Assembly: GCA_016758965.1 (NCBI GenBank) | Contig: JAEPRB010000091.1 | Coordinates: forward strand, 1-64,000 | Direction: 5' to 3' | DNA from: Circinella minor | Lineage: Eukaryota > Mucoromycota > Mucoromycetes > Mucorales > Lichtheimiaceae | DNA: 64,000 bases | Part shown: one piece after another, positions 14,893 through 63,697 of the stretch | Layout: each line of letters begins with the position of its first letter | Position numbering within the stretch: position 1 is the stretch's first letter | Translations under genes and position numbers: made by a program | The notes under the pieces: model-generated | Told to the model about the DNA's origin: nothing | Seen by the model: the letters and a program-made list of their open reading frames with translations, nothing else | Databases searched by the model: none

Positions 14893-14990
14893 ACAATCTA
14901 CATCAGTACTGCCTCGAATAATGTCATAAAGTCTTCGGCGAAGCCTTGACTAAGACTCATTATTCTTTGGCTGGTACTAATGTAGATTGT
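14893..14990. repeat. DIRS internal complementary region
   Basis: Positions 14893-14961 are the reverse complement of the left outer end 14651-14719 (two mismatches), and 14958-14990 match the reverse complement of the right outer end 18958-18990 (two mismatches). The two halves meet at a single AATG, giving the circle-junction sequence that templates the ends during DIRS replication. Confidence 0.85.
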
Positions 14991-17860: not shown

Positions 17861-17869
17861 GACAACCGC

Positions 17870-44097: not shown

Positions 44098-44523
44098 ATG
44101 AAGACTAAGCAAGACACCAATGGTGAAACCGTCATCGACTGGCAATCATACGTTGATGATGATCTTATGAGTTCTGGTTATGTTAGTGGAGCCGCTATCT
44201 ATGATTCCAATGGTTCTATATTGGCTAATAGTCTTGATTTGATGATAAGTGAATATGAATTCGAAGAAATAGCTGATGGCTTCAATGGTGTATATCCATT
44301 CACAGAGAAACAAGATGGTATTACTATTGCTGAAATGTCATACTATACTGTATATTCCGATGATAGCGAGTCGTTTTTCGGTACAAATGGCTGTGAAGGT
44401 GTATATATCTACAAGACCGGAGCGGTTTACTTGATTGTTACGTACAATAACGGTGCTGATTCAGTTGAGTGTAAATCGGTCGTTGAGAGCTTATTTGATC
44501 GCTTGAAGAATGAAGGCTGGTAA
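44098..44523 (+). CDS. profilin, class A (array copy 1)
   Basis: Intronless, 141 residues; profilins bind actin monomers, phosphoinositides and poly-proline ligands such as formins. The N-terminal helix region WQSYVDDDLM aligns with MSWQQYVDENL of class B/C copies but follows a 12-residue extension (MKTKQDTNGETVID). The core shows AAIYDSNGSILA and the C-terminal helix CKSVVESLFDRLKNEGW. Class A lacks the basic YGKKG turn seen in other copies (here FFGTNGCEG) and ends in Trp, not Tyr. It is followed by the 3'UTR block shared by the array. This is the only copy not inside the regular 2.1-kb spacing, because its spacer holds a MITE and a unique block. Confidence 0.88.
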   Translation: MKTKQDTNGETVIDWQSYVDDDLMSSGYVSGAAIYDSNGSILANSLDLMISEYEFEEIADGFNGVYPFTEKQDGITIAEMSYYTVYSDDSESFFGTNGCEGVYIYKTGAVYLIVTYNNGADSVECKSVVESLFDRLKNEGW

Positions 44524-45140
44524 AAAAAAATTATTGATTCATCATTCTAAAAAAAAAAAACACCTTGTCTCATGTTTTCAATTGTTCTTTTTATTATTCT
44601 CTATATCCCCTCCCTATAAAACAATGCCCCCCCCCTCCAAAACGTATCCCACACATTATCTATACATACATAACGCACATTTAATAAAGCGTAGAAATTT
44701 ATTTTTTTAAAAGAAGAAAAAATAAAACATATTATTAAAAGATAATGAATGTGATAAAAAAAATGGGGAGTGGGTTGCATATAATTTAATTCCAATAAGG
44801 ATGTCATCTTTCGCTATTTATTGAATACAGTGGGGCTGTAAAATACGGGTATGAATTATATTTATGGAAGTTTTTAATGCCCATAGTATATTGTATAATA
44901 GTGTTCTATATATTTTAAAGTGTAAAAAAAGATAATGAGAAAATATACTATATAATACACATAAAAGCTCATTTTTGACAAACATGGGTCATTTGAGTTA
45001 TGAAAGACTTGGAAGGCAACTTTATAATCTTCAACCATGTTTTTTTTTTTGGTGGTATGTTTAATATTTCAGAGGTAATACGTAATGATATGTAATTAAT
45101 AAATGTGTCTGAACCATCTTTATGAAATAAGGTACTAGAA
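44524..45140. other. profilin spacer 1, first part
   Basis: Holds the conserved 3'UTR block (44565-44700, TCTCATGTTTTCAATTGTTC ... AATAAAGCGTA) and the next shared module (AATACAGTGGGGCTGTAAAA near 44824). It ends at the MITE-like insertion. Confidence 0.6.
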
Positions 45141-45165
45141 GCTGCTCACAAGGTGCGAATTAATT
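45141..45165 (+). repeat. left terminal inverted repeat of the MITE-like element
   Basis: Begins GCTGCTCACAAGGTGCG; perfect inverted match to 45618-45642. Confidence 0.85.
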
Positions 45166-45617
45166 TTTTGAAAATTTGAGCATTACTTTATATGGTATAT
45201 GGGAGATACCTAATTAGGTATCTGGGTGGCCTCATTTTCCCTTTATACTTACTTAATATGGTAATGCTAAAATATCTCATATCCATCCATCATGCTTCTT
45301 GTCTATCGCCAATACATCACATCTTGGTAGTTGACTATCCTCTTCTTTTTTATATTTGAAGATTGCTGCTACTGTGTTGTTGCTAGCTTATAACTGCAAA
45401 ACCTTCATTATATTCAACTTCGAAGAAAAATGAAATCTGATTACTGTTTATATTGTTGCTGTTGTTGCTGTTCATTATTTTATGAAGAATTAATAAAGGT
45501 TGAGGCATGTTTGATTGTCTTTCAGGTAGTTTAAGAGATGCTCAACTCAGCTTACATACACGTCATATCATATACCAAAATAGGTATATCCTATTTAGGT
45601 AACTCGATTTTTTTGTG

Positions 45618-45642
45618 AATTAATTCGCACCTTGTGAGCAGC
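45618..45642 (-). repeat. right terminal inverted repeat of the MITE-like element
   Basis: Reverse complement of 45141-45165, 25 of 25 positions. Confidence 0.85.
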
Positions 45643-45824
45643 TAGAGGTCATTCAATCATAAAATTAGCAATTTCGGGTTGCCATTCATATAACCTGTGC
45701 ATACGTATGGTTGAATAATTGATCTTGATTTTGATATATGTATATCGGGAAATGTATTGATCAGTGGAAGTACCGCTCGGAGCTCGTCCGAAAATAAGCA
45801 TATTATAGTGGCTGATGGATTCTT

Positions 45825-46050
45825 CCTTTTTTTTTTATATGCCGAAATTGAGGTCGTATATTCCCCATCATCGTTTATTGAACAATTTCACCCGATTATT
45901 CCGAATAGTATGAGAGAGTATGAAAGCCATATAAAGGCTCTTGATTCTGAAACTGGTGTTCAATCAGAGATACGGATAAAAGGCGTGTGGGTCCATAGTC
46001 AACTCCACCTAAGAAACTTCAGTTTTATTTTTGACGTCAGTTGATTTTTA
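45825..46050 (+). other. unique coding-like block in spacer 1
   Basis: Open for about 70 codons (from EIEVVYSPSSFIEQFHPIIP to LRNFSFIFDVS). Codon composition is protein-like, unlike the surrounding spacer, and no other spacer has it. No ATG-started gene or domain is recognisable. It may be an exon remnant brought in by rearrangement. Confidence 0.3.
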
Positions 46051-47050
46051 GGTTCAATAATATACTAGCCTATTTGATCAGATATCCGTTTTTTTTTTTT
46101 TTTTTTTTTTTTAGCAAAAATAAATAAATAATTATTATTATAGCACATACCAATTCAAAAAAAAAGTAACAAATATGCGTAGTAATTTTCTTCGATAGAA
46201 AATGTGAACATGTTGAAAGAAAATATCATTATAATTTTTCTTAATTGTAGTTTAATACGAAATGTTTTTGGTAATGGGCGTTTTAATAGGATCTTTAATA
46301 AGAATAATGGGAGGACAAAATGAAACATAAATTATAAACAAAAGTGTAGCAACAAATATGGTCTCCAGGTCATTGGAAAAAGTGTGTTCAAAAAAAAAAA
46401 AAAAGCACGTTACATTATGAATGTTCTTTACTCTCAAGTTTTGAAACAGTATCTAAAGTGAGATAATAAAACTGTTTCAAAGGGGGTTTTTTTTTCGCTT
46501 ACTTTTGTTTACTTGATAGTAGATAAGCACTATAAAGGATTTGTCATATTCAGTTCTTCGTTTACAGTAATATTGGTTCTAAAAAATGACTTTTCCAAAT
46601 TATGCAAAGTATGCTATCAATGAAAAGGGAAATTAGAGTAATCTGTTTTTCGAGTTCCGATAACTAAATAAAAAAATTATTTTCTTATTGTTCTTTTTTT
46701 TAGCTCTTCATTGAAAAAAGAAAAATACTCACTGAGGTATATTATAATAGTCGCAACTAGTACTGAAAATAATAATGTTTATTATCAATCAATATCAACA
46801 GAAAGAAAAAATTAGTTATAAAGAGAATACATTATCCTCAGAGAATTCGAGCGATCATTGTTTTCTTAAAAGAGCCTTCACTTTAAAACGTTTTAAAGTT
46901 TACGTCGTCGCCGCAACTTTCTTTGTGCATAATTATCATGGATATCCTCTTTAGTAAAAAAAAAAAATCTCAAAACTGAGATTACAAGTTTACGTTGTCG
47001 AAAAGTTCTCCTTATGTACAATTCTTTTTTTTTTTAATTTTATATATATA

Positions 47051-47330
47051 ATGATGAATTGGCAATCATACCTTAATTTTAATCTTATTGGTTTCAACAA
47101 CGTTAGTCAAGCCGCCATCAAGGTTAGTTCTACTGAAGCTCAAAATATTATTACCGGTTTCCGTGATAGAGATAGTCCGCTCTTTGCGTCGGGTATTCAT
47201 GTCGCTTGGTGTTCAGTATCTTACTCTCCATGTTAATAACCGTTCAATTTACGGTAAAGAGAACACTCGTGGTGTCCGTATTGTCAAGATCAACCAATAT
47301 CTCGTGATTGGTGTTTATAAGGAGGGCGCA
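47051..47330 (+). pseudogene. profilin pseudogene, B/C chimera (array copy 2)
   Basis: Starts MMNWQSYLNFNLIGFNNVSQ. Relative to copy 9 it lacks about 14 codons between AAI and KVSSTEA (in-frame deletion). A +1 frameshift near 47209 (GTCGCTTGG against GTCGCTGG in copy 4) breaks the centre. The C-terminal helix is missing: after GVYKEG the sequence passes straight into the CGCACATCTAA part of the 3'UTR block, so one deletion removed the gene end and the UTR start. The front half resembles class C and the middle (SPLFASGIHVA, QYLTL) class B. It has no TATAAAAAGG box upstream. Confidence 0.82.
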
Positions 47331-47569
47331 CATCTAACAAAACATATGATGATTTTTTTAAATATAATACATATTATTAAAATATATTGAATGTGAAAAG
47401 AAAATAGTTGCAGAATGGAAATATATTCAGTTGCAAATGATGCCACTTTTTGTCATATTAAATACTGTGAGACCATAAAATAGGATTATAGATAAAAGTT
47501 ATTTGATACTTGTAGTATATAATATAATAGAGCTCTGTATGTACTATATTATGAAGTATGAAAATATTA

Positions 47570-47830
47570 AAGTAACGAACTTCAAGTGGTATGACATCGT
47601 ATTTGGGCCGATCAATACATTTCCCGCTATATATATGTCAAAATCAAGATCGATTACTCAACCATATGTACAAGTTATATGAATTGATAATTTTATAATT
47701 GGATGACCTCTAGTACCTTATTTCATAAAAATGGTTTTGTTTCTAAATGAACTTTTTTCAGACACATTTATTAATTACATATCATTATTACTTCCGAAAT
47801 ACTAAACATCGTACAAGAGAACATGATTGA
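47570..47830 (-). repeat. inverted spacer module after copy 2
   Basis: ATACATTTCCCGCTATATAT, AAATCAAGATCGATTACTCA and the GACCTCTAGTACC junction read as the reverse complement of the module found in direct orientation after copies 1, 3, 5, 7 and 8 (for example 49855-50035). Confidence 0.7.
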
Positions 47831-48537
47831 AAAATATAGAGTGCTTGATGAATCCCCCTTTTTTTTCATAATTATTATACAGGTCCTTTACAGAAATCAG
47901 GTAGCCCAATTGAGAGAAAGTCTACTAGTAAAGTTGGAATATCAGTTATGAAAAGACTGTGTTGGAACAATACTTGTGTCTACGATTACAAACCAGATAC
48001 ATCTGGACCTCATTACGTGTTCAAGTTTCGAGTTTCTTTTTGACCAACGAGAATCTTTAACACGGACGGGCTTAAAACTCTGGTTGATACACCATTTCCA
48101 TACTGTATCAATTTTTTCGTGAAACTCTTGTTTATCTGGTACATGTGCTCATAAGTTAATTAAACAAACTTATATTCACAGACAAGAAGCAAAAAAAAAA
48201 CAAGATAGTATGTAACAGTGAATAGTTCATTGTAAAATGTCATTTTCTTAAACGACTTTCCATTTCTTTCGAGTTTGTTAATTTTTGTTAAAACATGGAG
48301 ATCAACCTCGGTAAATTATTCTTGTCTTCTTAATAGCTTTGGCTTTTAGTTAATAAAGTACGGACCGAGCGAGGTATATAATAGTAATTAGGAATAAAAT
48401 AACAATATCATTATCAATCAACTAACATCCGTATGGAAGATCAATTCGATAGTACATGATACATAGTTCTGGGTGAAGGCTATCGATTTTTTATGCTTAC
48501 GTCGTAGTACACTAAAAATTTATGAACTCCTCGTTAA

Positions 48538-48725
48538 CCATTTTAGAGTTTTACGCCGTAAATAAAATGCCCCACCACCATCTCGATGCAGAGTTTCGCC
48601 GAAGCTTTTCTTTGTGCATAATTATTATGTATATCCTCTTCAGTAAAAAAAAAAAAAGTTACAAGTTTAAGTTGTCCCCAAAGTTCTTCTCCTGGACAAT
48701 TTTTTATTATAAAAAGAAAGGGTTG
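48538..48725 (+). promoter_or_regulatory. profilin promoter module, copy 3
   Basis: From ACCATTTTAGAGTTTTACGC through CTTTGTGCATAATTATTATG to a TATAAAAAG box at 48717-48725, about 75 bp before the ATG. The same order occurs before copies 4-9. Confidence 0.55.
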
Positions 48726-48798
48726 TCAAATTTAATTTTTTCTTCATCTCTTTTTATTTGTTTTATCACTTTTCAAAATCTTATATATATATATATAA

Positions 48799-49221
48799 AT
48801 GAAGACTAAGCAAGACACCAATGGTGAAACCGTCATCGACTGGCAATCATACGTTGATGATGATCTTATGGGTTCTTCTCGTGTTAATGAAGCCGCTATC
48901 TATGATTTCAATGGTTCTAAATTGGCTAGTACTCCCGATTTCACGATAAGTGATTCTGAATTTAAAGAAATAGCTAATGGCTTCAATGGTACAGCTCCAT
49001 TCACAGAGAAAAAAGATGTTACTATCGTTGAAACGCCATACTCTACTGTAAGTTCGGATGATAAAGAGTTGTTTTCCGGTGAAAGTATCTCTGGAGGTGT
49101 GTTGATCTACAAGACCGGAGCGGTTTACTTGATTGTTACGTACGATGACTCTATTGAACCCGAAGCGTGTAAATCGGCCGTTGAGAGCTTAACTGAATAC
49201 TTCAAGGATGAAGGCTGGTAA
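48799..49221 (+). CDS. profilin, class A (array copy 3)
   Basis: Intronless, 140 residues. It shares the extension MKTKQDTNGETVIDWQSYVD and the Trp C-terminus with copy 1, and is closest to copies 1 and 5. Core differences from copy 1 cluster in the middle (for example EAAIYDFNGSKLASTPDFTI and KELFSGESISGGVLIYKTGA), while the flanks are nearly the same. It shows the profilin fold pattern AAIYDFNG, GGVLIYKTGAVYLIVTY and the final amphipathic helix, but not the GKKG basic turn that contributes to actin contact in many profilins, so actin binding may differ. Confidence 0.88.
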   Translation: MKTKQDTNGETVIDWQSYVDDDLMGSSRVNEAAIYDFNGSKLASTPDFTISDSEFKEIANGFNGTAPFTEKKDVTIVETPYSTVSSDDKELFSGESISGGVLIYKTGAVYLIVTYDDSIEPEACKSAVESLTEYFKDEGW

Positions 49222-50670
49222 AAAAAAAATTATAATTATAAAAAAACACCATATCTCATGTTTTCAATTGTTCTTTTTATTATTCTCGATATCCCCCCCA
49301 CGTATAAAACAATGCCCCCCTCCAAACGTATCCCACACATTATATATAGTTACATACATAACCCACATTTAATAAAGCGTAGTATTATTTTTTTTAAAGA
49401 AAAAATAAAACATATTATTAAAAGTAATGAATGTGATAAAAAAAGTGGGGAGAGGGTTGCATATAATTTAATTCCAATGAGGATGTCATCTTTCGCTATT
49501 TATTGAATACAGTGGGGCTGTAAAATACGGGTATGAATTATATTTATGGAAGTTTTTAATGCTCATAGTATATTATATAATAGTGTTCTATATATTTTAG
49601 AGTGTGAAAAAAAATATATACTCTTAATATAAGTTAAAAGCTCACTTTTAACTAAAAAAAAGGGAGGGGGGTGTCACTGAAGTTATGAGTTCATAATAAA
49701 AAGTTTGGAACATGACTTTATATGCTTTTTTTTTGTGCTGACTCTTTTAATATTTCTTACTACGTTTTAATATGTCTTTAAAAGAATATAAAGATATAGT
49801 AAATGTGTTTAAGAATTCACTTTAAAACAGAACCATTTCTATGGAATAAAAAAAAGGTAATTGCTAGAGGTCATACAATCCAATTTCGGGTTGCCATTCA
49901 TATAACTTGTGCATATGGTTGAATAATCGATCTTGATTTTGATATGTATATCGGGAAATGTATTGATCGGCCCAAATATGGTGTCATACCACTTGAAGTG
50001 CGTTCGAAAATGAGCAGAGTTTGTTGGATGCCTTTTTTTTTATACGCGATCTTCCCCAGAAATCGAGTCATAATCCAATTGAGAGAATAAGTCTATTAGT
50101 GAAGTTAGAATATCAGTTGAGCACAAACTGTGCTGGAACAAGATTTGTGTCTACACTCCACAAACAAAATACGTCTGGACCTCATCACTTGTTTCCAGCT
50201 TCTTTTTGACCAGCGAGAACCTTTCATACGGTTTAAAGCTCTGACTGGTGCACCACTTCCATACAGTACTGTATCAATTGTTTCTTCAAAAACGTGTTTA
50301 TCTGGTACATGTGTTCCTTAAAGTAATCAAACAAATGCATATCCAGAGACAAGAAAAAAAAAAGGCAAGATACTATGTGAATATAATAGTTCATTGGAAA
50401 CGTCATTTCCATAAACAACTTTCCATTTTTTTAACATTTGTTAAACATAGAGATCAGCCTTAGTAAAAGTATTCTTCTTCTTTTATTGGTATCGTTGGCT
50501 CTTAGTTAATAATAGGCAGACCAAGGAATGGAAAGAATAATATTATTATCAATCCACTAACATCCATACGGAAGAACAATTAGATAGTACATGATACATA
50601 ATTCTGGGAGAATCCTAATCAATTTTTTATGCTTACGTAGTACATTAAAAATTTATATGAACTCCTCGTT
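49222..50670. repeat. profilin spacer after copy 3 (A-type spacer)
   Basis: Modules in order: 3'UTR block (49255-49400), AATACAGTGGGGCTGTAAAA (49506), the direct GAGGTCAT...TATCGGGAAATGTATTGATC module (49866-49965), then the ATCAGTTGAGCACAAACTGT and GACCAGCGAGAACC module (50110-50225). The same order and spacing recur after copy 5. Confidence 0.75.
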
Positions 50671-50882
50671 AACCATTTTAGAGTTTTACGCCGTAATAAA
50701 ATGTAATTGTAACCTCCCTCTCTCGATGAACGTTAATGCAGAATCTTCGCCAGAGCTTTTGTTTGTGCATAATGATTATCTGTATATCCGTCTTCAGTAA
50801 AAAAAAAGAAGACAAACTCTCAAAAAGCCGTGGTTACAAGTTTTTAGACAATTCTGTTTTTTTTATAAAAAGCAGGAATTAG
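50671..50882 (+). promoter_or_regulatory. profilin promoter module, copy 4
   Basis: AACCATTTTAGAGTTTTACG at 50671, TTTGTGCATAATGATTATCT near 50760, and a TATAAAAAG box at 50874-50882, about 85 bp before the ATG. Confidence 0.55.
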
Positions 50883-50966
50883 AAAGTTTCAGTTCGTTTT
50901 TTTTTCTTCTTCACCTCTTTACTTTGTTGTTTTATTAATTTTTTTTTTAAATTTTATATATAAATT

Positions 50967-51353
50967 ATGTCTTGGCAATATTACGTTGATGAGTACCTTA
51001 TGAAGAATGGTAACGTTAGTGAAGGCGGCATCTTTGGTTTGAAAGATGGTTCTCCATGGGCTACGTCTCCTTCTTTTGAGGTTAAATCTTCTGACATTAA
51101 AGAGATTATTGCCGGTTTACGTGACACAAATAGTCCACTCTTTGCGTCGGGTATTCATGTCGCTGGTATTCAGTACCTTACTCTTAAGGCTAATGGCCGT
51201 TCAACTTACGGTAAAAAAGGCGCTACTGGTGTCTGTATCGCCAAGGCTGGACAATGTCTCGTGATCGGTGTCTACAAGGAAAATATTCGAGGTGGTGACT
51301 GTGCAAATACCGTTGAGAATATGGTTGGTTTCCTTTTGGAAAACGATTACTAA
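50967..51353 (+). CDS. profilin, class B (array copy 4)
   Basis: Intronless, 128 residues, the usual fungal profilin length. Starts MSWQYYVDEYLMKNGNVSEG. Conserved poly-proline-site aromatics are present: Trp3, Tyr6 and the terminal Tyr. The centre has IFGLKDGSPWATSPSFEVKS and the basic turn STYGKKGATGVCIAK, then CLVIGVYKE. It pairs with copy 6, from which it differs mainly at residues 48-70 and in the C-terminal helix. TATATAAATT immediately before the ATG is common to classes B and C. Confidence 0.9.
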   Translation: MSWQYYVDEYLMKNGNVSEGGIFGLKDGSPWATSPSFEVKSSDIKEIIAGLRDTNSPLFASGIHVAGIQYLTLKANGRSTYGKKGATGVCIAKAGQCLVIGVYKENIRGGDCANTVENMVGFLLENDY

Positions 51354-51829
51354 AAAATAATGCATAACTATACACAATACCGTGTCTCATATTTTCAATG
51401 ATCTTTTTTTTTTTGTTTTCGATATCCTCTTTCCTAACACAAATCCCTTCTTTAAATGTACCCCACACATTATATACATACATAACGCACATTTAATAAA
51501 GCATTTAATAATTTTTTTAGTGATATATACATATGTTACTAATATTACTATAATGAATGTGGAAAGAAAACGGTTGCAGAATGGAAATCGAATTTGCATA
51601 TAGAAATATTCAGTTGCAATGATGCCATCTTTCCCGATACTAAATACTCTGTAAAATATGGATATATATAAAAGTTATTCATACTTATAGCATCTAAGAT
51701 AATACAGCTCTGTATATTATGAAGTGTGAAATAAAAGATAATTACCAATATATACTCTTATACAATTAAAAGCTTACTTTTAATAGTAGGTGTCATTTAA
51801 ATTACGAGTTAATATTAAATAGTTTCGCA

Positions 51830-52105
51830 TCCAACAAACATTACTCATTTTCGAACGAACTTCAAGTGATATAACATCATATTTGCGCCGGTCAATACAT
51901 TTTCCGCTATATATATGTCAAAATCAAGATCGACTACTCAACCATATGTACAAGTTATATGAATGGCAACCCAAAATTGATAATTTTATGATTGGGTGAC
52001 CTCTAGTACCTTATTTCATAAAAATGGTTTTGTTTTTAAATGAACTTTTTTTAGGCACATTAAATAATATCATTATTACTTCCGAAATACTAAACATCGT
52101 ACGAA
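51830..52105 (-). repeat. inverted spacer module after copy 4
   Basis: The stretch from GCATCCAACAAACATTACTC to the GACCTCTAGTACCTTATTTC part and onward to CCGAAATACTAAAC is the reverse complement of the direct module beside copies 1, 5, 7 and 8. The sequences on either side keep normal orientation, so about 275 bp are flipped. Confidence 0.75.
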
Positions 52106-52798
52106 TAGAACATGATTGAAGAATATAGAGTGCTTGATGACCCCTTTTTTTTCATAATTACTATGCAGGTCGTTTACAGAAATCGGATAGTTCAATTGAG
52201 AGAAAGTCTACTAGTAAAGTTGGAATATCAGTTATGAAAAGACTGTGTTGGAACAACACTTGTGTCTACGATTACAAACCAGGTACATCTGGACTTCATT
52301 ACGTGTTCAAGTTTCGAGTTTCTTTTTGACCAACGAGAACCTTTAATACGGACGGGCTTAAAACTCTTGTTGATACACCATTTCCATACTGTATCAATTT
52401 TTTCGTGAAACTCTTGTTTATCTAGAACATGTGCTTATAATCAATTAAACAAACGCATATGCACAGACAAAAAAAAGAAAACAATCATGATAACATCTGA
52501 CAATTGATAATTCGTTGTAAAATATCATTTTCATAATAAACGACTTTCCATTTCTTTCGAGTTTGTTAATTTTTGTTAAAACATGGAGATCTATCTCAGT
52601 AAAGTATTCTTGTCCTCTTAATAGCTTTGGCTTTTAGTTAATAAAGTACGGACCGAGGTATATAATAGTAAAGGAAATAACAATAATATTATCAATCAAC
52701 TAACATCCATATGGAAGAACAATTAGATAGTACATGATACATAATTCTGGGAGAATCCTAATCGATTTTTATGTTTACGTAGTACACTGAAAATTTAT

Positions 52799-52948
52799 TA
52801 ACCATTTTAGAGTTTTATGCCGTAATAAAATGCCCGATCATCTCGATGCAGAGTTTCGCCGAAGCTTTTCTTTGTGCATGATTATTATGTATATCCTCTT
52901 CAGTAAAAAAAATGGTTACAAGTTCTTCTGTTTTTTTTTATAAAAATA
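52799..52948 (+). promoter_or_regulatory. profilin promoter module, copy 5
   Basis: ACCATTTTAGAGTTTTATGC at 52801, CTTTGTGCATGATTATTATG near 52869 and a weaker TATAAAAATAAAG box at 52939, 89 bp before the former ATG. Confidence 0.5.
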
Positions 52949-53027
52949 AAGAGTTGTCAAACTTAATTTTTTTTTTCATCTCTTTTATTTGTTTTATCAC
53001 TTTTCAAAATCTTATATATATATAAAA

Positions 53028-53452
53028 ATGAAGACTAAGTAAGACACCAATGGTGAAACCGTCATCGACTGGTAATCATACGTTGATGATGATCTTATGG
53101 GTTCTGGTTATGTTCGTGGAGCCGCTATCTATGATTTCAATGGTTCTATATTGGCTAGTACTCCTGATTTGATGATAAGTGATTCTGAGTTCCAAGAAAT
53201 AGTTATTGGCTTCAATGGTGCATATCCATTCACAGCGAAACAAGATGGTATATTATTGCTGAAATACCATACTCTACTGTATATTCCGATGATAGCGAGT
53301 CGCTTTTCGGTACAAATATCTCTGGAGGTGTATTTATCTACAAGACCGGAGCGGTTTACTTGATTGTTACGTACAATGACGATATTGATTCAGATGCGTG
53401 TAAATCGTTCGTTGAGAGCTTATTTGATCGCTTCAAGAATGAAGGCTGGTAA
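53028..53452 (+). pseudogene. profilin pseudogene, class A (array copy 5)
   Basis: Aligns end to end with copies 1 and 3. Codon 5 is TAA (53040-53042) and the codon after the first Trp is TAA (53073-53075); both are CAA in copies 1 and 3. A 1-nt deletion near 53253 (GGTATATTATTGC against GGTATTACTATTGC) shifts frame. The remainder still reads GSGYVRGAAIYDFNGSILAS, then GGVFIYKTGAVYLIVTYNDD and FDRFKNEGW, so inactivation is recent. Promoter module and 3'UTR block are retained. Confidence 0.93.
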
Positions 53453-54058
53453 AAAAAAATTATTGATTCATCATTCTAAAAAAAAAAAAAACACCTTGTC
53501 TCATGTTTTCAATTGTTCTTTTTATTATTCTCGATATCCCCCCCTCCGAATGTATCCCATACATTATCTATACATACATAACGCACATTTGTTAAAGCGT
53601 AGTATTATTTTTTTTAAAGAAAGAATAAAACATATTATTAAAAAGTAATGAATGTGATACAAAAAGTGGGGAGGGGGTTGTATATAATTTAATTCCAATG
53701 AGGATATCACCTTTCGCTATTTATTGAATACAGTGGGGCTGTACAATACGGGAATGAATTATATTTATGAAAGTTTCTAATGCCCATAGTATATTATATT
53801 ATATAATATAATAGAGTTCTGTATATTTTAAAGTGTGAAAAAAAATATAAGAGATACAACGAAGTCAATTAGAAAATATACTCTTAATGCAAGTTAAAAG
53901 CTCACTTTTAACAAAAAAGAAAAAAGGGGGGCGGGGGTGTCACTGAAATTATAAAAAGTTTGGAACATGACTTTATATGCTTTTTTTTTGTGCTGACTCT
54001 TTTAATATTTCTTAGGTTCTAATATCTTTAAAAGAATATAAAGATATAATAAATGCGT

Positions 54059-54391
54059 TTAAGAATTCACTTCAAAACAGAACCATTTCCATGGAATAAA
54101 AAAAAGGTAATTGCTAGAGGTCATACAATCCAATTTCGGGTTGCCATTCATATAACTTGTGCATATGGTTGAATAATCGATCTTGATTTTGATATATATA
54201 TCGGGAAATGTATTGATCGGCACAAATATGATGTCATACACTTGAAGTTCGTTCGAAAATGAGCAGAGTTTGTTGGATGCCTTTTTTTTATATACGCGAT
54301 CTTCCCCAGAAATCGAGTCATAATCCAATTGAGAGAATAAGTCTATTAGTAAAGCTAGAATATCAGTTGAGCACAAACTGTGTTGGAACAA
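54059..54391 (-). pseudogene. antisense coding-like relic in profilin spacer after copy 5
   Basis: Open for about 110 codons on the minus strand: DILALLIDLFSQLDYDSISG, then YDIIFVPINTFPDIYIKIKI, then CMTSSNYLFFIPWKWFCFEV. The homologous stretch after copy 8 (about 60600-60770, minus) reads YDIIFVPINTFPDIFIKLKI then DDTEIEQFYDWMISNYPFLI. Similar amino-acid strings with different base changes suggest that a protein-coding segment was once amplified with the profilins. No domain is recognised and no copy is intact. Confidence 0.4.
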
Positions 54392-54890
54392 GATTTGTGT
54401 CTACACGCCACAAACAAAATACGTCTGGACCTCATCACTTGTTTCCGGCTTCTTTTTGACCAGCGAGAACCTTTCATACAAACAGGCTTAAAGCTCTGGC
54501 TGGTGTAACATTTTTTGCGCACTGTATCAAATTTTTGATCAAACCTTTGTTTATCTGGTACATACGCTTCTAAAGTAATCAAACAAATGCATATCCAGAG
54601 ACAAGAAAAAAAAAGACAAGATACTATGTGAATATGATAGTTCATTGGAAACGTCATTTCCATAAACAGCTTTCCATTTTTGTAACATTTGTTAAACATA
54701 GAGATCAGCCTTAGTAAAAGTATTCTTCTTCTTTTATTGGTATCTTTGGCTCTTAGTTAATACTAGGCAGATCAAGGAATGAAAAGAGTGATATTATTAT
54801 CAATCAACTAGCATCCATATGGAAGATCAATTAGATAGTACATGATACATAATTCTGGGAGACACTAAAAAATTTATGAACTCCTCTTTA

Positions 54891-55130
54891 ACCATTTTAG
54901 AGTTTTACGCCGTAATAAAATGTAATTGTAACCTCACTCCCTCGATGAACGTTTATGCAGAATTTTCGCCAGAGCTTTTGTTTGTGCATAATTAATATGA
55001 ATGCCATTTACCCTCTTGTTTTTTTTTTTTTTTTTTAAAAAAAAACACTCTTAAAACTACGATTGTATGTTTACGGGAGGGGTCCGCAAAGTTCCTTTTT
55101 AAACAATTCTTTTTTTTTTATATAAAAAGG
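54891..55130 (+). promoter_or_regulatory. profilin promoter module, copy 6
   Basis: ACCATTTTAGAGTTTTACGC at 54891, GTTTGTGCATAATTAATATG near 54979 and TATAAAAAGG at 55121-55130, 74 bp before the ATG. Confidence 0.55.
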
Positions 55131-55203
55131 AGAAATTGGGAAGTTTTAATTCACTTCATTTCTTTATTTGTTTTATTACTTTTTTAAATTTTATATATAA
55201 ATT

Positions 55204-55590
55204 ATGTCTTGGCAACAGTACGTTGATGAAAACCTTATAGGGACCGGTAATGTTAGTCAAGCCGGCATCTTTGGTTTGAAAGATGGTTCTCCGTGGGCTA
55301 CTTCTCCTTCTTTTGAGGTTAAATCTTCTGATATTAAAAAGATTATTGCCGGTTTCCATGACCAAGGTATTTCACTCCATATGTCGGGTATTCATGTCGC
55401 TGGTGTTATGTACAGTGTTATTAAGGCTGATAATCTTTCAATCTACGGTAAAAAGGGCACTAGTGGTGTCTGTATCGCAAAGACTGAACAATGTCTCGTG
55501 ATCGGTGTTTACAAGGAGGGTATTGAAATTGGTAACTGTGCAAAGACCGTTGAGCAAATGGCTGATTTTCTTCGTCAAAAAAATTACTAA
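55204..55590 (+). CDS. profilin, class B (array copy 6)
   Basis: Intronless, 128 residues: MSWQQYVDENLIGTGNVSQA, then the same IFGLKDGSPWATSPSFEVKS as copy 4. It has the basic turn SIYGKKGTSGVCIAKTEQCL, then VIGVYKEGIEIGNCAKTVEQ, and ends QKNY. All aromatic residues of the poly-proline site (Trp3, Tyr6, terminal Tyr) are present. It and copy 4 are 4.24 kb apart, matching the 4.23 kb between copies 3 and 5, which indicates duplication of an A-B pair. Confidence 0.9.
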   Translation: MSWQQYVDENLIGTGNVSQAGIFGLKDGSPWATSPSFEVKSSDIKKIIAGFHDQGISLHMSGIHVAGVMYSVIKADNLSIYGKKGTSGVCIAKTEQCLVIGVYKEGIEIGNCAKTVEQMADFLRQKNY

Positions 55591-57299
55591 AAAACAATGC
55601 ATAACTATACACAGCACCGTGTCTCATATTTTCAATGATCTTTTTTTTTTGTTCTCGATATCCTCTTTCCTAACACAAATCGCTTCTTTAAATGTACCCC
55701 ACACATTATATATATATATAACGCACATCTAATAAAGCATATAATAATTTTTTAAAATATACTACTAAAAGATAATAAAGGTGGAAAGAAAACGGTTGCT
55801 GAATGGGAATGGAGTTTGTATATACATATATTCAGTTGCAAATGATGCCACCTTTCACCATATTAAGTACTCCGTAAAATATGGATATATATGAAAGTTA
55901 TTGATACTTATAGCATCTAATAAAATACAGCTCTGTACGTATATTATGAAGTGTGAAATAAAAAGATAATCAGAATATATACTCTTATACAAGTAAAACC
56001 TCAGTGTTAATAAAAAAGGGATCATTTAATTTATGAGTTAATATTGAAAAGTCTGAAAGTGATTTTATATTCTTCACCCATGTTTCTTTTTGCACTGGTC
56101 CTTTTGATATTTTTTAATGTTTTCAGAAACAATAAAGATATTAATAAATGCCCAGAAAGAAAAAAAAATAGTTCAATGGAATAAAACTATTAATAAAAGT
56201 ATTCGATTATAGGATTTCGGGTTCACATGTATATAACCTGCTTTCTGAGCACTCATGCACTTTTTATTTTATTTTATTTTATACAACGTCCTCTCTATAT
56301 ATTTAACAGTTTAAATTACATTACAGTGAAAAACGCCAAATGGAACAACATATACTTGGGTATTATGGTTAGATGACAGACTAAATCTTCAATCGTAAAG
56401 CATGCTTATTGATGATGATAATACGAATTGTAAATTATTTTATATAATCCAAAAGAAAAAACGATCTTGAAGGCGTTACTGAACCATACGTTATGATATT
56501 GTTCCATTATTATCTATATTTTGGGAATAAACAGCTTGCTGAAATTGACAAAGATATCTTGATCGTAGTCAAAAAGTAGCTCGTACTCCATCAAAGATCA
56601 ATTGGGTTGGTCAATAAGCTATATAATAAACGGTTTACTCAAGCGGTTAAAATATATTAAAAAAAACCACTTTTTATCACTCAAAGCTCGATTTCTTTGG
56701 AAACGGCGCAAGTGTTGCGAATATAGCTAGATATTATGAAGGTGGGAGTTAGTACACTATTATTAATGTAAGTTACATTTAAAACTTATTATAAAGATGG
56801 TAGTGGTATATGTATTACTTTTTAGAGGACTTAATTATTAAACTATTCTCGGATATAATGAGCAGTAAATTATATTTGTTTGCAAATAAACCTTGTGTCG
56901 AGTCCACAGTACCACTGATATACGTACGTATCTTATATCGTACGAAGAATTGCAGAATTTTTGAAATCGTGATGTGTAACAGTAACAAGCATATTACTTA
57001 CTCGTATTATGGTCATTTTCATAAACGCCTTTCGATTTCTCAAGAGTTTGTTAATATGGGGACCAACCTTAGAAAAAAAAAAGTAAAATCTTGTCATAAT
57101 GTTATTTTTGGCTACTAATTAATGATATACGGACCGATGTATATAACACTAACTAGCAATGAAATAACGATATTATTATTAATCAACTAGAATCAACATG
57201 AATGAAAAATCAGGTAGTACATGATATATAATTCTGGAAGAAGGCTATCGATTTTTAGGCCTATGTAGTACACTAAAGAAAGTTTGTGAACTCCTTTTT
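55591..57299. repeat. profilin spacer after copy 6, partly divergent
   Basis: The 3'UTR block (55618-55740) and following 250 bp match the copy 4 spacer. From about 56210 to 57100 the sequence departs from the other spacers, although the CATTTTCATAAACGCCTTTC part near 57013 matches again. A 102-codon frame at 56810-57118 has no homologue in the window and is weak as a gene. Confidence 0.5.
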
Positions 57300-57300
57300 A

Positions 57301-57497
57301 ACCATTTTAGAGTTTTACGCCATAATAAAAATGTGATATAATCTCCCTCCCTCAATGAGCGTGTGCAGAATTTCGTCGGAGCTTTTGTTTGTGCATAATT
57401 ATTATCTGTATATCCTCTTCAGTAAAAAAAAAAAAAGACAAACTCTCAAAAAGCCGCGGTTACAAGTTTTTTAGACAGTTCTCTTTTAATAAAAAGG
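57301..57497 (+). promoter_or_regulatory. profilin promoter module, copy 7
   Basis: ACCATTTTAGAGTTTTACGC at 57301, GTTTGTGCATAATTATTATC near 57387 and AATAAAAAGG at 57488-57497. The last 165 bp before the ATG are essentially identical to those of copy 8. Confidence 0.55.
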
Positions 57498-57565
57498 AGG
57501 AATTAGGACGTTTCAGTTCGTTTTTTTTCTTCTTCATCTTTTTACTTCAATTTTATCTATAAATC

Positions 57566-57937
57566 ATGTCTTGGCAACCATACGTTGATAGACTTGTTGG
57601 TGATGGTGATGCGAGACAAGCTGCTATCTTTGGTTTGGATGGTACTGAACTGGCTACTTCTCCTTCTTTCAAAGTTAGTGCTACTGAAGCTCAAAATATT
57701 ATTGCCGGTATAGGTGGTACGGCTGTACACTCGGGTTATAAGATCGCTGGTGTAAAGTACTTTATTCTGAAGCATGATGATCGTTCAGTTTTCTGTAAAA
57801 AGGGCAGTAGTGGTGCCTACATGGTCAAGACCAAACAACATCTTTTGATTGGTGTTTACACGGAGGGTATAGCACCTACTAAGTGTGAAAAAGCCGTTCA
57901 GACTCTGGCTGACTATCTTTCTGGAATAGGCTATTAA
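57566..57937 (+). CDS. profilin, class C (array copy 7)
   Basis: Intronless, 123 residues, starting MSWQPYVDRLVGDGDARQAA. It has the class C block IFGLDGTELATSPSFKVSAT, a shortened central loop, and the basic turn SVFCKKGSSGAYMVKTKQHL followed by LIGVYTEG; it ends ADYLSGIGY with the expected Tyr. The N-terminal 43 residues are almost those of copy 8, but the rest differs strongly despite near-identical flanking DNA on both sides. Confidence 0.9.
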   Translation: MSWQPYVDRLVGDGDARQAAIFGLDGTELATSPSFKVSATEAQNIIAGIGGTAVHSGYKIAGVKYFILKHDDRSVFCKKGSSGAYMVKTKQHLLIGVYTEGIAPTKCEKAVQTLADYLSGIGY

Positions 57938-57944
57938 CAAAAAC

Positions 57945-58695
57945 AGTAATTTTTTATAACTCTAAACAAAATTGTGTCTCATGTTTTCAATTGTTTTTTT
58001 TTGTTCACGATATCCCTTCCCTAACGCAAATCCCCTCTCCAAACGTACCGCACACATTATATATACATATAGATTAGCATATTTATAATAAAGCACAATA
58101 TTATTTTTTAAAAGAAGAAAAATAAAACACATTATTAAAAAAATAATGAATGTGATAAAAAACGGTTGAAAGAATTTTGCATATACTCCAATCGTAATGA
58201 GAATGTTACCTTTCACTATATTAAATACAGTGGGGCTGTAAATTACGAATATGAATAATATTTATAAAAGTCATTGATATTTGTACAATATAAATATAAT
58301 GAAGCTCTGTATATGTTATGAAGTGTGGAAAAAATAAAGATAATTACAAAATATACTCTTATACAAGTAAAAACTCACTTTCAATAGGGACCATTTAAGT
58401 TATGTGCTGATATTAAAAAGTTTGAAAAGTAACTTTATATTCTTCAACCCTGTTTTCGTCTTTGTACTATGTTTATTACTCCAGACGTAATAATGGTATT
58501 AATAAACGTGCCTTAAAAAATTTCACTTGGAAACAAAAATTATTTTATGGAATAAGAAAAGGATAATTAGAGATCATCCAATCATAAAATTGTTCAATTT
58601 CAGTGTCATCTCCTGTACATTTGGTTGAATAATCGATTTTGAGTTTGATAAATATATCGGGAAATGTATTGATCGGCGCGAGTATAATGTCATAT
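57945..58695. repeat. profilin spacer after copy 7, near-identical to that after copy 8
   Basis: From CAGTAATTTTTTATAACTCT onward about 740 bp match 60014-60765 with very few differences, covering the 3'UTR block, the GTGGGGCTGTAAATTACG module and the direct spacer module. The match weakens at the GTCATATCGCTTGGATGCC junction, where copy 7 lacks about 30 bp present after copy 8. Confidence 0.85.
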
Positions 58696-59370
58696 CGCTT
58701 GGATGCCTTTTTTTTATACACGATCTTCCACAGAAACCGGGTAATCCAAGTGAGAGAATAAGTCTACTAGTAAGGGTGAAATATCAGTTGTGCAAAGACT
58801 GTGTTGCAACAAAGGTTTGTGTCGACACCTCACAAACAAGATACGTCTCACTGAATTTCATCACTTGTTTCCAGCTTCTTTTTGACCAACGAGAACCTAT
58901 AATACAGTTCAAAGCGTTGGTTCGTGCACCATTTCCATATACTGTATCAATTGTTTCTCCAAACACTTGTCTATCTGGTACATGTGCTTATAATTAATAA
59001 AACAAACACATATGCACAGACGGAAAAAAAAAGAAAAACAATCATGATAATATCTGACAATTGATAATTCGTTGTAAAATGTCATTTTCATAAACGACTT
59101 TCCATTTCTTTCGAGTTTGTTAATTTTTGTTAAAACATGGGTGGAGATCAACCTCAGTAAATTATTTTTGTATTATTAATAGCTTTGGCTTTTAGTACGG
59201 ACCGAGATATATAATAGTATTAGTAATTAGCAGTGAAATGACGATATTATTATCAATCAACTAAGATCCATATGAAAGATCGATTAGATAGTACATGATA
59301 CATAATTCTGGGAGATGGCTATCGATTTTTATGCTTACGTAGTACACTAAAGATTTATGAACTCCTCTTT

Positions 59371-59573
59371 AACCATTTTAGAGTTTTACGCCGTAATAAA
59401 ATGTAATTGTAACCTCCCTCTCTCGATGAACTTTTATGCAGAATTTTCGCCAGAGCTTTTGTTTGTGCATAATGATTATCTGTATATCCTCTTCAGTAAA
59501 AAAAAAAAAAAAGACAAACTCTCAAAAAGCCGCGGTTACAAGTTTTTTAGACAGTTCTCTTTTAATAAAAAGG
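59371..59573 (+). promoter_or_regulatory. profilin promoter module, copy 8
   Basis: AACCATTTTAGAGTTTTACG at 59371, GTTTGTGCATAATGATTATC near 59459 and AATAAAAAGG at 59564-59573. Confidence 0.55.
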
Positions 59574-59641
59574 AGGAATTAGGACGTTTCAGTTCGTTTT
59601 TTTTCTTCTTCATCTTTTTACTTCAATTTTATCTATAAATC

Positions 59642-60019
59642 ATGTCTTGGCAACCATACGTTGATAGTCTTGTTGGTAGTGGTAATGTGGCTCAAGCTGC
59701 TATCTTTGGTTTGGATGGTACTGAACTGGCTACTTCTCCTTCTTTCAAAGTTAGTGCTACTGAAGCTAAAGAGATTATTGCCAGTTTCCGTGACGAAGGA
59801 AGTACACTCTATATATTGGGTGTTGATGTCGCTGGTGTTAAGTACGAGGTTTTTAGGGCTGATACCCATTTCATTCACGGTGTAAAGAACGCTACTGGTG
59901 TCGTTGTTGCCAAGGCCGAACAATGTTTCGTGATTGGTGTTTATGAGGAGAGTATGAAAGCTCATGCTCAACAAACCATTGGTGCTATGGCTGACTTTCT
60001 TTTGTCAAATCATCAGTAA
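59642..60019 (+). CDS. profilin, class C front with B-like back (array copy 8)
   Basis: Intronless, 125 residues. Starts MSWQPYVDSLVGSGNVAQAA and shares IFGLDGTELATSPSFKVSAT with copy 7. From residue about 44 it becomes AKEIIASFRDEGSTLY, with AKAEQCFVIGVYEE resembling class B. The turn is HGVKNATG, less basic than GKKG. It ends LLSNHQ, not Tyr: its final CAG-TAA lies exactly where the near-identical 3' flank of copy 7 begins (CAGTAATTTTTT), as if a recombination joint created the stop. Loss of the terminal Tyr may weaken poly-proline binding. Confidence 0.88.
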   Translation: MSWQPYVDSLVGSGNVAQAAIFGLDGTELATSPSFKVSATEAKEIIASFRDEGSTLYILGVDVAGVKYEVFRADTHFIHGVKNATGVVVAKAEQCFVIGVYEESMKAHAQQTIGAMADFLLSNHQ

Positions 60020-61457
60020 TTTTTTATAACTCTAAACAAAATTGTGTCTCATGTTTTCAATTGTTTTTTTTTTGTTCACGATATCCCTTCCCTAACGCAA
60101 ATCCCCTCTCCAAACGTACCGCACACATTATATATACATACAGATTAGCATATTTATAATAAAGCACAATATTATTTTTTAAAAGAAGAAAAATAAAACA
60201 CATTATTAAAAAAATAATGAATGTGATAAAAAAAACGGTTGAAAGAATTTTGCATATACTCCAATCGTAATGAGAATGTTACCTTTCACTATATTAAATA
60301 CAGTGGGGCTGTAAATTACGAATATGAATAATATTTATAAAAGTCATTGATATTTGTACAATATAAATATAATGAAGCTCTGTATATGTTATGAAGTGTG
60401 GAAAAAATAAAGATAATTACAAAATATACTCTTATACAAGTAAAAACTCACTTTCAATAGGGACCATTTAAGTTATGTGCTGATATTAAAAAGTTTGAAA
60501 AGTAACTTTATATTCTTCAACCCTGTTTTCGTCTTTGTACTATGTTTATTACTCCAGACGTAATAATGGTATTAATAAACGTGCCTTAAAAAATTTCACT
60601 TGGAAACAAAAATTATTTTATGGAATAAGAAAAGGATAATTAGAGATCATCCAATCATAAAATTGTTCAATTTCAGTGTCATCTCCTGTACATTTGGTTG
60701 AATAATCGATTTTGAGTTTGATAAATATATCGGGAAATGTATTGATCGGCACAAATATGATGTCATATCACTTGAAGTGCGTTCGAAAATGAGCAGTGTT
60801 TGTTGGATGCCTTTTTTTTATATGCAGTCTTCCCCAGAAAACGGGTAATCCAATTGAGAGAATAAGTCTACTAGTGAGTAGGTTGGAATATCAGTTGTGC
60901 AAAGACTGTGTTGCAACAAGATTTGTGTCTACGCTTACAAACCAGATACCTCTGGACATCATTACTTGTTCAAGTTTTCAGCTTCTTTTTGACCAACAAG
61001 AACTTTTAATACGGTTCAAAGCGTTGGCTCGTGCACCATTTCCATATACTGTATCAATTGTTTCCTCAAACTCTTGTTTATCTGTTACTAACTCACATAT
61101 AAATCAATGAGCCAAAATAAACGAATATTCACAGACAAAATAAAATGCAGGATACTATCTACCAATTGATAATTCGTTGTAAAATAAACGACTTTCCATT
61201 GCTTGCGAGTTTGTTAATTTTTGTTAAAACATGAAGATCAACCTTAGTAAAAGTATTCTTGTCTTATTAGTAACTTTGGCTCTTAGTTAATAATATACGT
61301 ACAGACCAAGGAATGGAAAGAATGTTATAATTATCAACAACTAACATCCATACGGAAGATCAATTAGATAGTACATGATACATAATTTTGGGAGAAGGCT
61401 ATCGATTTTTTATGGTTACGTCGTAATACACTAAAAATTTATAAACTCCCTCGTTAA
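60020..61457. repeat. profilin spacer after copy 8
   Basis: Modules in standard order: 3'UTR block (60045-60175), GTGGGGCTGTAAATTACG (60303), direct GAAATGTATTGATCGG module (60730-60750), the ATCAGTTGTGCAAAGACTGT and GACCAACAAGAAC module (60890-61005) and the promoter side. Minus-strand coding-like strings appear (DKQEFEETIDTVYGNGARAN, about 61085-61010), as after copies 2 and 7. Confidence 0.65.
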
Positions 61458-61643
61458 CCATTTTAGAGTTTTACGCCGTAAATAAACCATCTCGATGAAC
61501 TTTATATGCAGAATTTCACCGGAGCTTTGTTTGTGCATAATCTAAAAAAAAACTTTCAAAATCACGATTGTATGTTTATGGAGGGGTCTGCAAAGCTTTT
61601 TTTTTTTAGATAATTCTTCTTTTATTTTTTTATATAAAAAGGG
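61458..61643 (+). promoter_or_regulatory. profilin promoter module, copy 9
   Basis: ACCATTTTAGAGTTTTACGC at 61458, GTTTGTGCATAATC near 61529 and TATAAAAAGG from 61634, about 72 bp before the ATG. Confidence 0.55.
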
Positions 61644-61714
61644 GAAATTGGGAAGTTTCAAATCACTTCAATTCTTTACTTGTTTTATTACTATCAAAAT
61701 CTTATATATAAATC

Positions 61715-62098
61715 ATGTCTTGGCAACAGTACGTTGATGATAGCCTTATAAGTACTGGTAAAGTTAGTCAAGCTGCTATCTTTAGTTTGGATGGTACTGA
61801 ACTGGGTACTTCTCCTTCTTTCAAAGTTAGCTCTACCGAAGCTAAAGATATAATTGCCGGTTTCGATAACAACAAAGTACTCTATGACTCGGGTGTTTTT
61901 GTCGCTGGTAATAAGTACTATGTTCTGAGAATTAACGATTCTTTAATTACCGGTCGTGAACCCACTGGTAGTGGGGTCTGTATTGCCAAGACCAACCAAG
62001 TTATTTTGATTGGTGTTTACAAGAAAGGTATGGAAGGTGGTCAATGTACAAACACCATCGAGACTCTGGGTGAATTTCTTTCTGGAATGAAATATTAA
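61715..62098 (+). CDS. profilin, class C (array copy 9, last)
   Basis: Intronless, 127 residues: MSWQQYVDDSLISTGKVSQA, then IFSLDGTELGTSPSFKVSST. This copy keeps the most canonical C-terminal half: GSGVCIAKTNQVILIGVYKK, then GGQCTNTIETLGEFLSGMKY, with Trp3, Tyr6 and the terminal Tyr. The basic turn is replaced by TGREPTG. Its 3'UTR is shorter and the spacer modules stop about 140 bp downstream, so it marks the right edge of the array. Confidence 0.92.
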   Translation: MSWQQYVDDSLISTGKVSQAAIFSLDGTELGTSPSFKVSSTEAKDIIAGFDNNKVLYDSGVFVAGNKYYVLRINDSLITGREPTGSGVCIAKTNQVILIGVYKKGMEGGQCTNTIETLGEFLSGMKY

Positions 62099-62912: not shown

Positions 62913-63697
62913 ATGGGACAAGCTGGTTCACATCTCGAGGATATGGTTAACTCGTCGAACTGTAAGCCAAAAAAAAAAAAAAAAAAAGAGTGTTTTATAG
63001 AAAAGGAGTGCGAGGAGAAATTGTAGAGAAGAAAAGAAAGAAATGGAGAAAAAAGTAATTTTTAATTTTTTTGAATTTTACCTTTTTTTTTATTTAAAAA
63101 AAAAGTTTCGGCTGATGAGATTCAACGTTTATATAAACGTTTTATGAAACTTGACAAAGATCGGTCTGGATCGATTGATAAAGATGAATTTTTATCTATT
63201 CCACAAATTGCAAATAATCCATTAGCAACACGTATGATTGCCATCTTTGATGAAGATGGTGGAGGTGATGTTGATTTTTTTGAATTTATTAAAGGTTTAA
63301 GTATCTTTAGTGCAAGAGGAAATAAACGAGAAAAATTAGAATGTAAGTAAAATAGCATGTGTGTGCTACCCCACCAACCCCCCCCCACACACAACCCCAC
63401 AACTCGTCTTTTTTTAAAACTAACTCATGTATATATAATTTTTTTTTTTTTAAAAAAAAAGTTGCATTTAAAGTATATGATATGGATCGTGATGGTTATA
63501 TTTCCAATGGTGAATTATTTTTAGTACTTAAAATGATGGTTGGAAATAATTTAAAAGATGGTCAATTACAACAAATTGTTGATAAGACGATTATGGAAGC
63601 AGATAAAGATATGGATGGTAAAATTGGATTTGATGAATTTATGATCATGGTGGAAAATACCGATGTTGCACGACAAATGACATTAGAAAACTTTTAA
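62913..63697 (+). CDS. CNB1: calcineurin regulatory subunit B
   Basis: Exons 62913-62961, 63106-63342 and 63462-63697; GT/AG borders and phases agree, 173 residues. This Ca-binding subunit activates the calcineurin A phosphatase; in Mucorales the equivalent gene is cnbR, which influences dimorphism. Gly2 (MGQAGSHL) suits N-myristoylation. Four EF-hands are seen: [12 protein letters not shown] (33-44), [12 protein letters not shown] (65-76), [12 protein letters not shown] (102-113) and [12 protein letters not shown] (143-154). The linker [20 protein letters not shown] is almost invariant in the family. The start is the only ATG that gives the short N-terminus once the first 49-nt exon is spliced. 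Confidence 0.95.

What the first reader, a model, noticed from the sequence alone, without database searches (positions are those of the whole stretch)
44098..62098. Nine-copy tandem profilin array in an early-diverging fungus
Nine intronless profilin genes in one orientation (seven intact, two pseudogenes) fill 18 kb. Fungi are generally known for a single profilin gene, often with introns. Absence of introns in all copies, in a genome where ordinary genes have several, suggests a retroposed founder followed by tandem duplication. A family this diverged points to specialised or diversified profilins rather than dosage alone.
Basis: partly seen in the sequence, partly recalled or inferred. Interest (0 to 1): 0.92.

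Follow-up and report, generated by a model that had tools for sequence, protein, structure and literature searches.

The report
Diversifying tandem array of fungal profilins
A fungus carries, besides one ordinary profilin gene, a row of nine intronless profilin copies (seven still intact) whose protein-coding parts have mostly changed more than the DNA right beside them, which suggests that a normally conserved cell-skeleton protein has become a diversifying gene family.

Summary
Seven intact and two broken profilin genes, all intronless and on the + strand, fill 44098-62098; all seven intact copies and pieces of both broken ones match PF00235. The assembly has four more profilin loci: one intact gene with three introns (C423) and three degenerate intronless copies. 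There are two types: A (five intact) and B (two intact, with a 12-residue N-terminal extension). B2 is still modelled as a profilin (pLDDT 95.6; best PDB match TMt 0.93). dN/dS is 2.73 (B1/B2) and 2.08 (A3/A4), the only 2 of 21 pairs whose interval excludes neutrality. Codon models add a positively selected class, confined to codons 44-end, weaker when gap-adjacent codons are masked. Best reading: an mRNA-derived founder, tandem duplication, then diversifying selection on the C-terminal two-thirds while the proline-docking W3 and Y6 stay fixed. The selective partner is inferred, and there are no expression data. Eight searches of one open-access library listed nothing comparable.

The parts
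44098..44523 (+). B1: intact intronless profilin, 141 aa, 12-residue N-terminal extension, C-terminal W
   Evidence: ORF; PF00235 1.8e-26
47053..47341 (+). Broken A-type copy
   Evidence: PF00235 piece at 47205-47333, 36.1 bits; sequence; extent judged by eye
48799..49221 (+). B2: intact intronless profilin, 140 aa, same extension as B1
   Evidence: ORF; PF00235 5.8e-27; model pLDDT 95.6; best PDB match 1acf, TMt 0.93
50967..51353 (+). A1: intact intronless profilin, 128 aa
   Evidence: ORF; PF00235 2.5e-39
53029..53452 (+). Broken B-type copy with in-frame stops and a frameshift
   Evidence: Two PF00235 pieces in different frames; groups with B1 and B2
55204..55590 (+). A2: intact intronless profilin, 128 aa, most canonical of the array
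   Evidence: ORF; PF00235 8.4e-45
57566..57937 (+). A3: intact intronless profilin, 123 aa
   Evidence: ORF; PF00235 3.1e-37
59642..60019 (+). A4: intact intronless profilin, 125 aa, C-terminal aromatic lost (Q)
   Evidence: ORF; PF00235 2e-32; model pLDDT 92.5
61715..62098 (+). A5: intact intronless profilin, 127 aa
   Evidence: ORF; PF00235 1.9e-39
57180..57475 (+). Upstream block, here before A3; recurs before 7 other copies (partly before the broken A copy; not found before B1) and at the broken C122 copy
   Evidence: 9 matches in the assembly, itself included; B1 shows only weaker upstream similarity

Best explanation
A lineage-specific family of profilin paralogues. Step 1 (well supported): a spliced profilin mRNA was copied back into DNA and gave an intronless founder; the intron-containing gene on C423 remains as the conserved, presumably housekeeping copy. 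Step 2 (shown as a pattern): the founder unit, with upstream block and poly(A) signals, was duplicated in tandem, with two losses, one dispersed unit (C122) and exchange between copies that homogenised flanks. Step 3 (statistically supported): coding sequence from about codon 44 on was driven apart by positive selection while the N-terminal part with W3 and Y6 stayed conserved. Step 4 (inferred): the products are cytosolic profilins that still fold and dock on proline-rich partners such as formins but differ in how they engage actin or another partner. The likeliest driver is a conflict, for example with an agent that targets the profilin-actin node, in which the array supplies decoys or resistant variants. 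The confidence given is for steps 1-3; for the conflict in step 4 it is about 0.3.
For: All seven intact copies lack the three introns of C423. Coding divergence exceeds both 300-bp flanks in 19 of 21 intact pairs. dN/dS is 2.73 (B1/B2) and 2.08 (A3/A4) with bootstrap intervals above zero. M2a beats M1a by 2dlnL 27.0 (A1-A5), 21.9 (with C423) and 30.8 (all seven); 44 null simulations for A1-A5 gave at most 12.9. Codons 1-43 give 0.0 and 0.8, codons 44-end give 19.9 and 27.2. With gap-adjacent codons masked, 15.1 and 10.8. A3/A4 coding windows drop to 55% while about 1 kb of 3' flank is 98-100% identical. Seven of seven intact copies have AATAAA within 260 bp and a TATA-like box at -79 to -103. 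B2 and A4 models are confident.
Against: No expression data. Five of 13 profilin loci are broken. Global omega is near 1 (0.90 for A1-A5, 0.76 with C423, 1.04 for all seven), as under relaxed constraint too. Only 2 of 21 pairs have an interval above zero, and 7 of 21 have dN/dS below 1. Exchange between copies breaks the single-tree assumption of the codon models. After masking, the seven-copy value (10.8) is below the largest A1-A5 null (12.9). No partner, toxin or antagonist was identified, and no other isolate was compared.
Confidence: 0.55

Rival explanations
1. Relaxed constraint: surplus intronless copies drift and die, and the intact ones are merely not dead yet.
For: Two of nine array copies and three of three dispersed copies are broken; global omega is near 1.
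Against: Synonymous sites and flanks change less than replacement sites. Under random mutation each A copy would stay free of stops with probability 0.26-0.34 after 40 substitutions, product 0.0023 for five; the true number of substitutions per copy is unknown. Codons 1-43 remain constrained.
Confidence: 0.22
2. Ordinary sub- or neofunctionalisation: the copies are profilins for different stages or compartments, with adaptive change but no antagonist.
For: Confident profilin models; W3 and Y6 retained; a shared upstream block before 8 of 9 copies. Arabidopsis has five profilins with vegetative and other classes (PMC4702419, abstract opening in the search listing).
Against: The shared upstream block argues for common rather than divided regulation; continuing positive selection and flank exchange are more than stage specialisation needs.
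Confidence: 0.35
3. Exported effectors: the copies are released and act on the actin of a host, prey or competitor, as reported for the nematode profilin MiPFN3.
For: A profilin used as an effector is in print (PMC5871015, passages); fast coding change is typical of effectors (recalled).
Against: By eye no N-terminal signal peptide: A copies start MSWQ, B copies start with a polar extension. No predictor was run and the life style of the fungus is unknown.
Confidence: 0.07
4. Assembly artefact: copies multiplied or shuffled by the assembler.
For: No reads were available; A3 and A4 share nearly identical 3' flanks.
Against: Intact copies differ by 16-32% in coding DNA, the window has no Ns, and one spacer carries its own transposable element.
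Confidence: 0.03

Closest known systems
Single-gene fungal and amoebal profilins (PF00235; 1acf, 1ypr, 3d9y)
   Same: Same domain and fold; W3 and Y6 kept
   Different: Here seven intact intronless copies stand in tandem with strongly diverged C-terminal two-thirds, beside an intron-containing gene
Plant profilin families (Arabidopsis, five variants; PMC4702419, search listing)
   Same: Several profilin isoforms in one genome
   Different: No intronless tandem array or positive selection is mentioned in what I saw of that paper
Diverged second profilin of Rhizopus (P0010, P0190, P0203, P0206)
   Same: A Mucorales genus with a canonical profilin (P0123) and a strongly diverged type
   Different: Rhizopus loci were not examined: copy number, tandem order and introns unknown; P0010 falls outside the array groups on a long branch
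Nematode effector profilin MiPFN3 (PMC5871015, passages)
   Same: A profilin put to a non-housekeeping use
   Different: Exported by a parasite and not known to me as an array; nothing here shows export
Accelerated coding evolution in venom gene families (recalled, no call)
   Same: Coding DNA more diverged than adjacent noncoding DNA, tandem birth and death
   Different: Those are secreted toxins; profilin is a cytoskeletal protein and no toxicity is implied

Membership tests
Profilin family (PF00235) | Match to the curated profile over its cut-off | tested here: met
   7 of 7 intact copies
Profilin family (PF00235) | Profilin fold | tested here: met
   B2 model matches solved profilins, TMt 0.93 to 1acf. 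The A4 model is confident but was not searched; the other five were not modelled
Profilin family (PF00235) | Proline-binding aromatics W3 and Y6 (site recalled; Y6 role in PMC10907219, passages) | tested here: met
   Invariant in the 17 aligned rows, array included; in a wider 41-row alignment Y6 is invariant and W3 at least 90%
Profilin family (PF00235) | Third groove tryptophan and C-terminal aromatic (positions recalled) | tested here: inconclusive
   Tryptophan kept in 2 of 7 copies (A1, A2); C-terminal aromatic kept in 6 of 7 (not A4)
Profilin family (PF00235) | Actin binding | not testable with these tools
   Two lysines taken from recall as actin contacts are both present only in A3; the second is R in A5; both are lost in B1 and B2. 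Column equivalence was not tested
mRNA-derived gene copy (retrogene) | Lacks introns of the parent | tested here: met
   0 of 3 C423 introns in 7 of 7 intact copies
mRNA-derived gene copy (retrogene) | Homology limited to the transcript | tested here: inconclusive
   Adjoining matches end by -107 and +229; flanks may have decayed
mRNA-derived gene copy (retrogene) | Poly(A) tract and target-site duplication | not tested
   No systematic search was made
Effector profilin (MiPFN3-like) | Export into another organism | not tested
   No secretion predictor or expression data used

The most novel reading that the evidence does not exclude
The array is a molecular-conflict locus: profilin, a conserved actin regulator, has become a diversifying family in a fungus. 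Its N-terminal proline-docking part is fixed and its actin-facing C-terminal two-thirds are under positive selection, the copies acting as decoys or resistant variants against agents that attack the profilin-actin node, or as recognition factors.
Probability: 0.3. Interest if true: 0.88.

Novelty: new variant of a known kind. Interest (0 to 1): 0.66.

Why it matters
Core actin regulators are regarded as conserved proteins. A tandem array in which profilin coding sequence has diverged more than its own flanks would mean that something selects for profilin variety. It offers seven natural variants, with one fold where modelled and different surfaces, and makes it directly testable which profilin functions can be changed, and why. 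It would also show an mRNA-derived gene copy founding a diversifying family in a fungus.

Tried and rejected
A second gene in the repeat unit: a minus-strand spacer block (best ORF 54355-54699) has no Pfam match at E up to 1, and 5 of 6 aligned spacer copies have no frame open throughout; treated as decayed sequence.

Actin co-expansion: the actin-family search gave 25 matches. By eye C139 is the conventional actin and C11 an Arp1-like gene with introns; the other matches were not resolved gene by gene. No actin array was seen.

One retro-burst for all dispersed copies: C122 shares long flanks with array units, whereas C21 and C154 match only in and close to the transcript-sized stretch, within about 3 kb fetched on each side. 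The nucleotide tree does not resolve their order.

Indel phase: 39 of 65 coding gaps and 159 of 205 flank gaps were not multiples of three, but gap placement by nucleotide alignment at this divergence is unreliable, so I do not use it.

A4 core replaced from another copy: its nearest array copies differ by 19% or more in coding DNA, and no further intact intronless profilin is in the assembly, so either flanks were homogenised or the donor is lost.

Uniqueness of the B extension: the two profile searches listed 120 of 135 and 120 of 160 relatives. Of the 217 non-window proteins held after all three searches, none contains the two short strings of the B extension that I looked for. N-terminal extensions as such are not unusual: 33 of the 206 with the WxxY motif near the start have more than four residues before it.

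Literature: eight answered searches in one open-access library listed no paper on a fungal profilin array or on positive selection on fungal profilin, judged from titles and abstract openings of the listed papers only; two searches returned mostly off-topic papers. PMC9705415, PMC10907219 and PMC5871015 were seen in passages; PMC4702419 as a listing with the start of its abstract.
Full report
What is there. The window lies in an unnamed 46.6 Mb, 619-contig assembly (contig C91, 143,470 bp). Nine profilin copies lie on the + strand between 44098 and 62098: seven ATG-to-stop ORFs of 123-141 aa and two degenerate copies. All seven intact copies pass the PF00235 cut-off. There are two types: A1-A5 begin MSWQ as canonical profilins do; B1, B2 and the broken B copy have 12 extra residues at the N-terminus. 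In the AlphaFold model of B2 (pLDDT 95.6) the extension holds two short strands (3-5 and 11-13), and the model matches solved profilins (1acf, TMt 0.93). The A4 model is also confident (pLDDT 92.5) but was not searched against structures. Among the 217 non-window proteins held, none contains the two short strings of the B extension that I tested, although 33 of the 206 with a WxxY motif near the start have some N-terminal extension.

Genome context. PF00235 gives 16 matches: 10 in the array, and 6 at C423, C154, C21 and C122. C423 is an intact gene with three phase-0 introns, the last just before the stop codon, encoding 126 aa. It is 81% identical to Phascolomyces profilin, 64-72% to ten other named Mucorales profilins and 50% to the diverged Rhizopus P0010; array copies are 36-56% identical to it. 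This places the organism in or near Mucorales, an inference from one protein. C154, C21 and C122 are intronless and broken. C122 shares long flanks with array units, so it is a dispersed unit. One conventional actin was recognised by eye, and formin-domain matches fall on seven contigs, so I see no matching actin expansion.

Origin. Absence of all three parental introns from every intact copy points to a spliced-mRNA intermediate. In 1.5 kb flanks, matches to C423 that adjoin the coding sequence occur upstream in 3 of 7 copies (to -107 at most) and downstream in 6 of 7 (to +229 at most), with a few short weak hits elsewhere. The control pair A1/A2 matches over 1.48 kb upstream and 470 bp downstream. 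A DNA duplicate that later lost its introns through a cDNA is not excluded. In 7 of 7 intact copies a TATA-like box lies 79-103 bp before the ATG (five have TATAAAAA; A3 and A4 have the variant TAATAAAAAGG, which my pattern also accepted), and AATAAA follows within 260 bp of the stop. A block of about 300 bp upstream of A3 recurs, wholly or in part, before seven other copies and at C122 and nowhere else in that search; B1 was not among the 9 matches.

Divergence. In 19 of 21 pairs of intact copies the coding sequence is more diverged than both 300-bp flanks; in the exceptions (B1/B2 upstream, A4/A5 downstream) the flank is ahead by 0.003-0.004. In A3/A4, 60-bp windows starting at coding nt 130-310 are 55-78% identical while about 1 kb of 3' flank is 98-100% identical. 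Point mutation after a recent duplication is not a plausible cause, so exchange between copies is involved. dN/dS exceeds 1 in 14 of 21 array pairs; the bootstrap interval of dN minus dS is above zero in 2 of 21 (B1/B2 2.73, A3/A4 2.08). Against C423 7 of 7 values are below 1, with the interval below zero in 2 of 7.

Codon models (M1a and M2a, my own Python implementation). 2dlnL is 27.0 for A1-A5, 21.9 with C423 and 30.8 for all seven. Forty-four simulations under the fitted null for A1-A5 gave a 95% point of 7.0 and a maximum of 12.9; no null was simulated for the seven-copy set or for the masked sets. Split with separate trees, codons 1-43 show no signal (0.0 and 0.8) and codons 44-end carry it (19.9 and 27.2). 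Dropping codons within four of a gap leaves 15.1 (90 codons, A1-A5) and 10.8 (75 codons, seven copies): the direction holds, but the seven-copy value is then below the largest A1-A5 null. Global omega of 0.90, 0.76 (with C423) and 1.04 does not by itself separate selection from relaxed constraint.

Function. W3 and Y6 are invariant in 17 aligned profilins; in a 41-row alignment Y6 is invariant and W3 at least 90%. A third tryptophan is kept only in A1 and A2; the C-terminal residue is Y in A1, A2, A3 and A5, W in the B copies and Q in A4. Of two lysines that I take from recall as actin contacts, A1 and A2 lack the first, A4 and A5 the second (R in A5), B1 and B2 both, A3 neither. In Leishmania profilin K68A strongly weakens and K86E abolishes actin binding, and Y6 is needed for proline binding (PMC10907219, passages); column equivalence was not tested. 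I infer that the array encodes cytosolic profilins with a kept proline-docking side and a varied actin-facing side, while C423 does the housekeeping. A conflict is the simplest driver, but no partner is identified and plain sub- or neofunctionalisation remains nearly as likely.

Verdict. Added here: the intron-containing parent, the dispersed broken copies, the two types, the shared upstream block, and the sign of positive selection limited to the C-terminal two-thirds. It is still a set of profilins: a new variant of a known kind.

Noticed in passing
45140-45643: A 504-bp insert with 26-bp terminal inverted repeats in the first spacer, 94-98% identical to stretches on at least five other contigs (C77, C25, C193, C338, C72): a MITE-like element private to one unit.
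   Followed up: partly
47574-47842 and 51827-52131: Spacer segments inverted relative to the same segment in other units (for example 49797-50004, 60505-60783): inversions inside the repeat unit.
   Followed up: partly
54355-54699 (-) and equivalent spacer blocks: A conserved spacer block with similar minus-strand reading pieces in six units, open throughout in one of six; no Pfam match.
   Followed up: partly
14963-17918 (-): Reverse transcriptase domain (16947-17918, RVT_1, 3.8e-20) next to a 529-aa frame without Pfam match: a retrotransposon-like element.
   Followed up: no
10250-11650 (-): DDE_Tnp_4 transposase-like frame, 5.2e-8.
   Followed up: no
62914-63697 (+): EF-hand gene directly right of the array; looks by eye like calcineurin B (one exon tested, EF-hand 3.6e-10).
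   Followed up: partly
G000:C423 profilin, last intron: The third intron lies exactly between the last coding codon and the stop codon; deposited Zychaea, Halteromyces and Rhizomucor proteins run on past that point, which may be a mis-annotation of the same intron.
   Followed up: no
Rhizopus records P0010, P0123, P0190, P0203, P0206: Rhizopus has a canonical profilin and at least one strongly diverged type, so diverged profilin paralogues may be wider in Mucorales.
   Followed up: no
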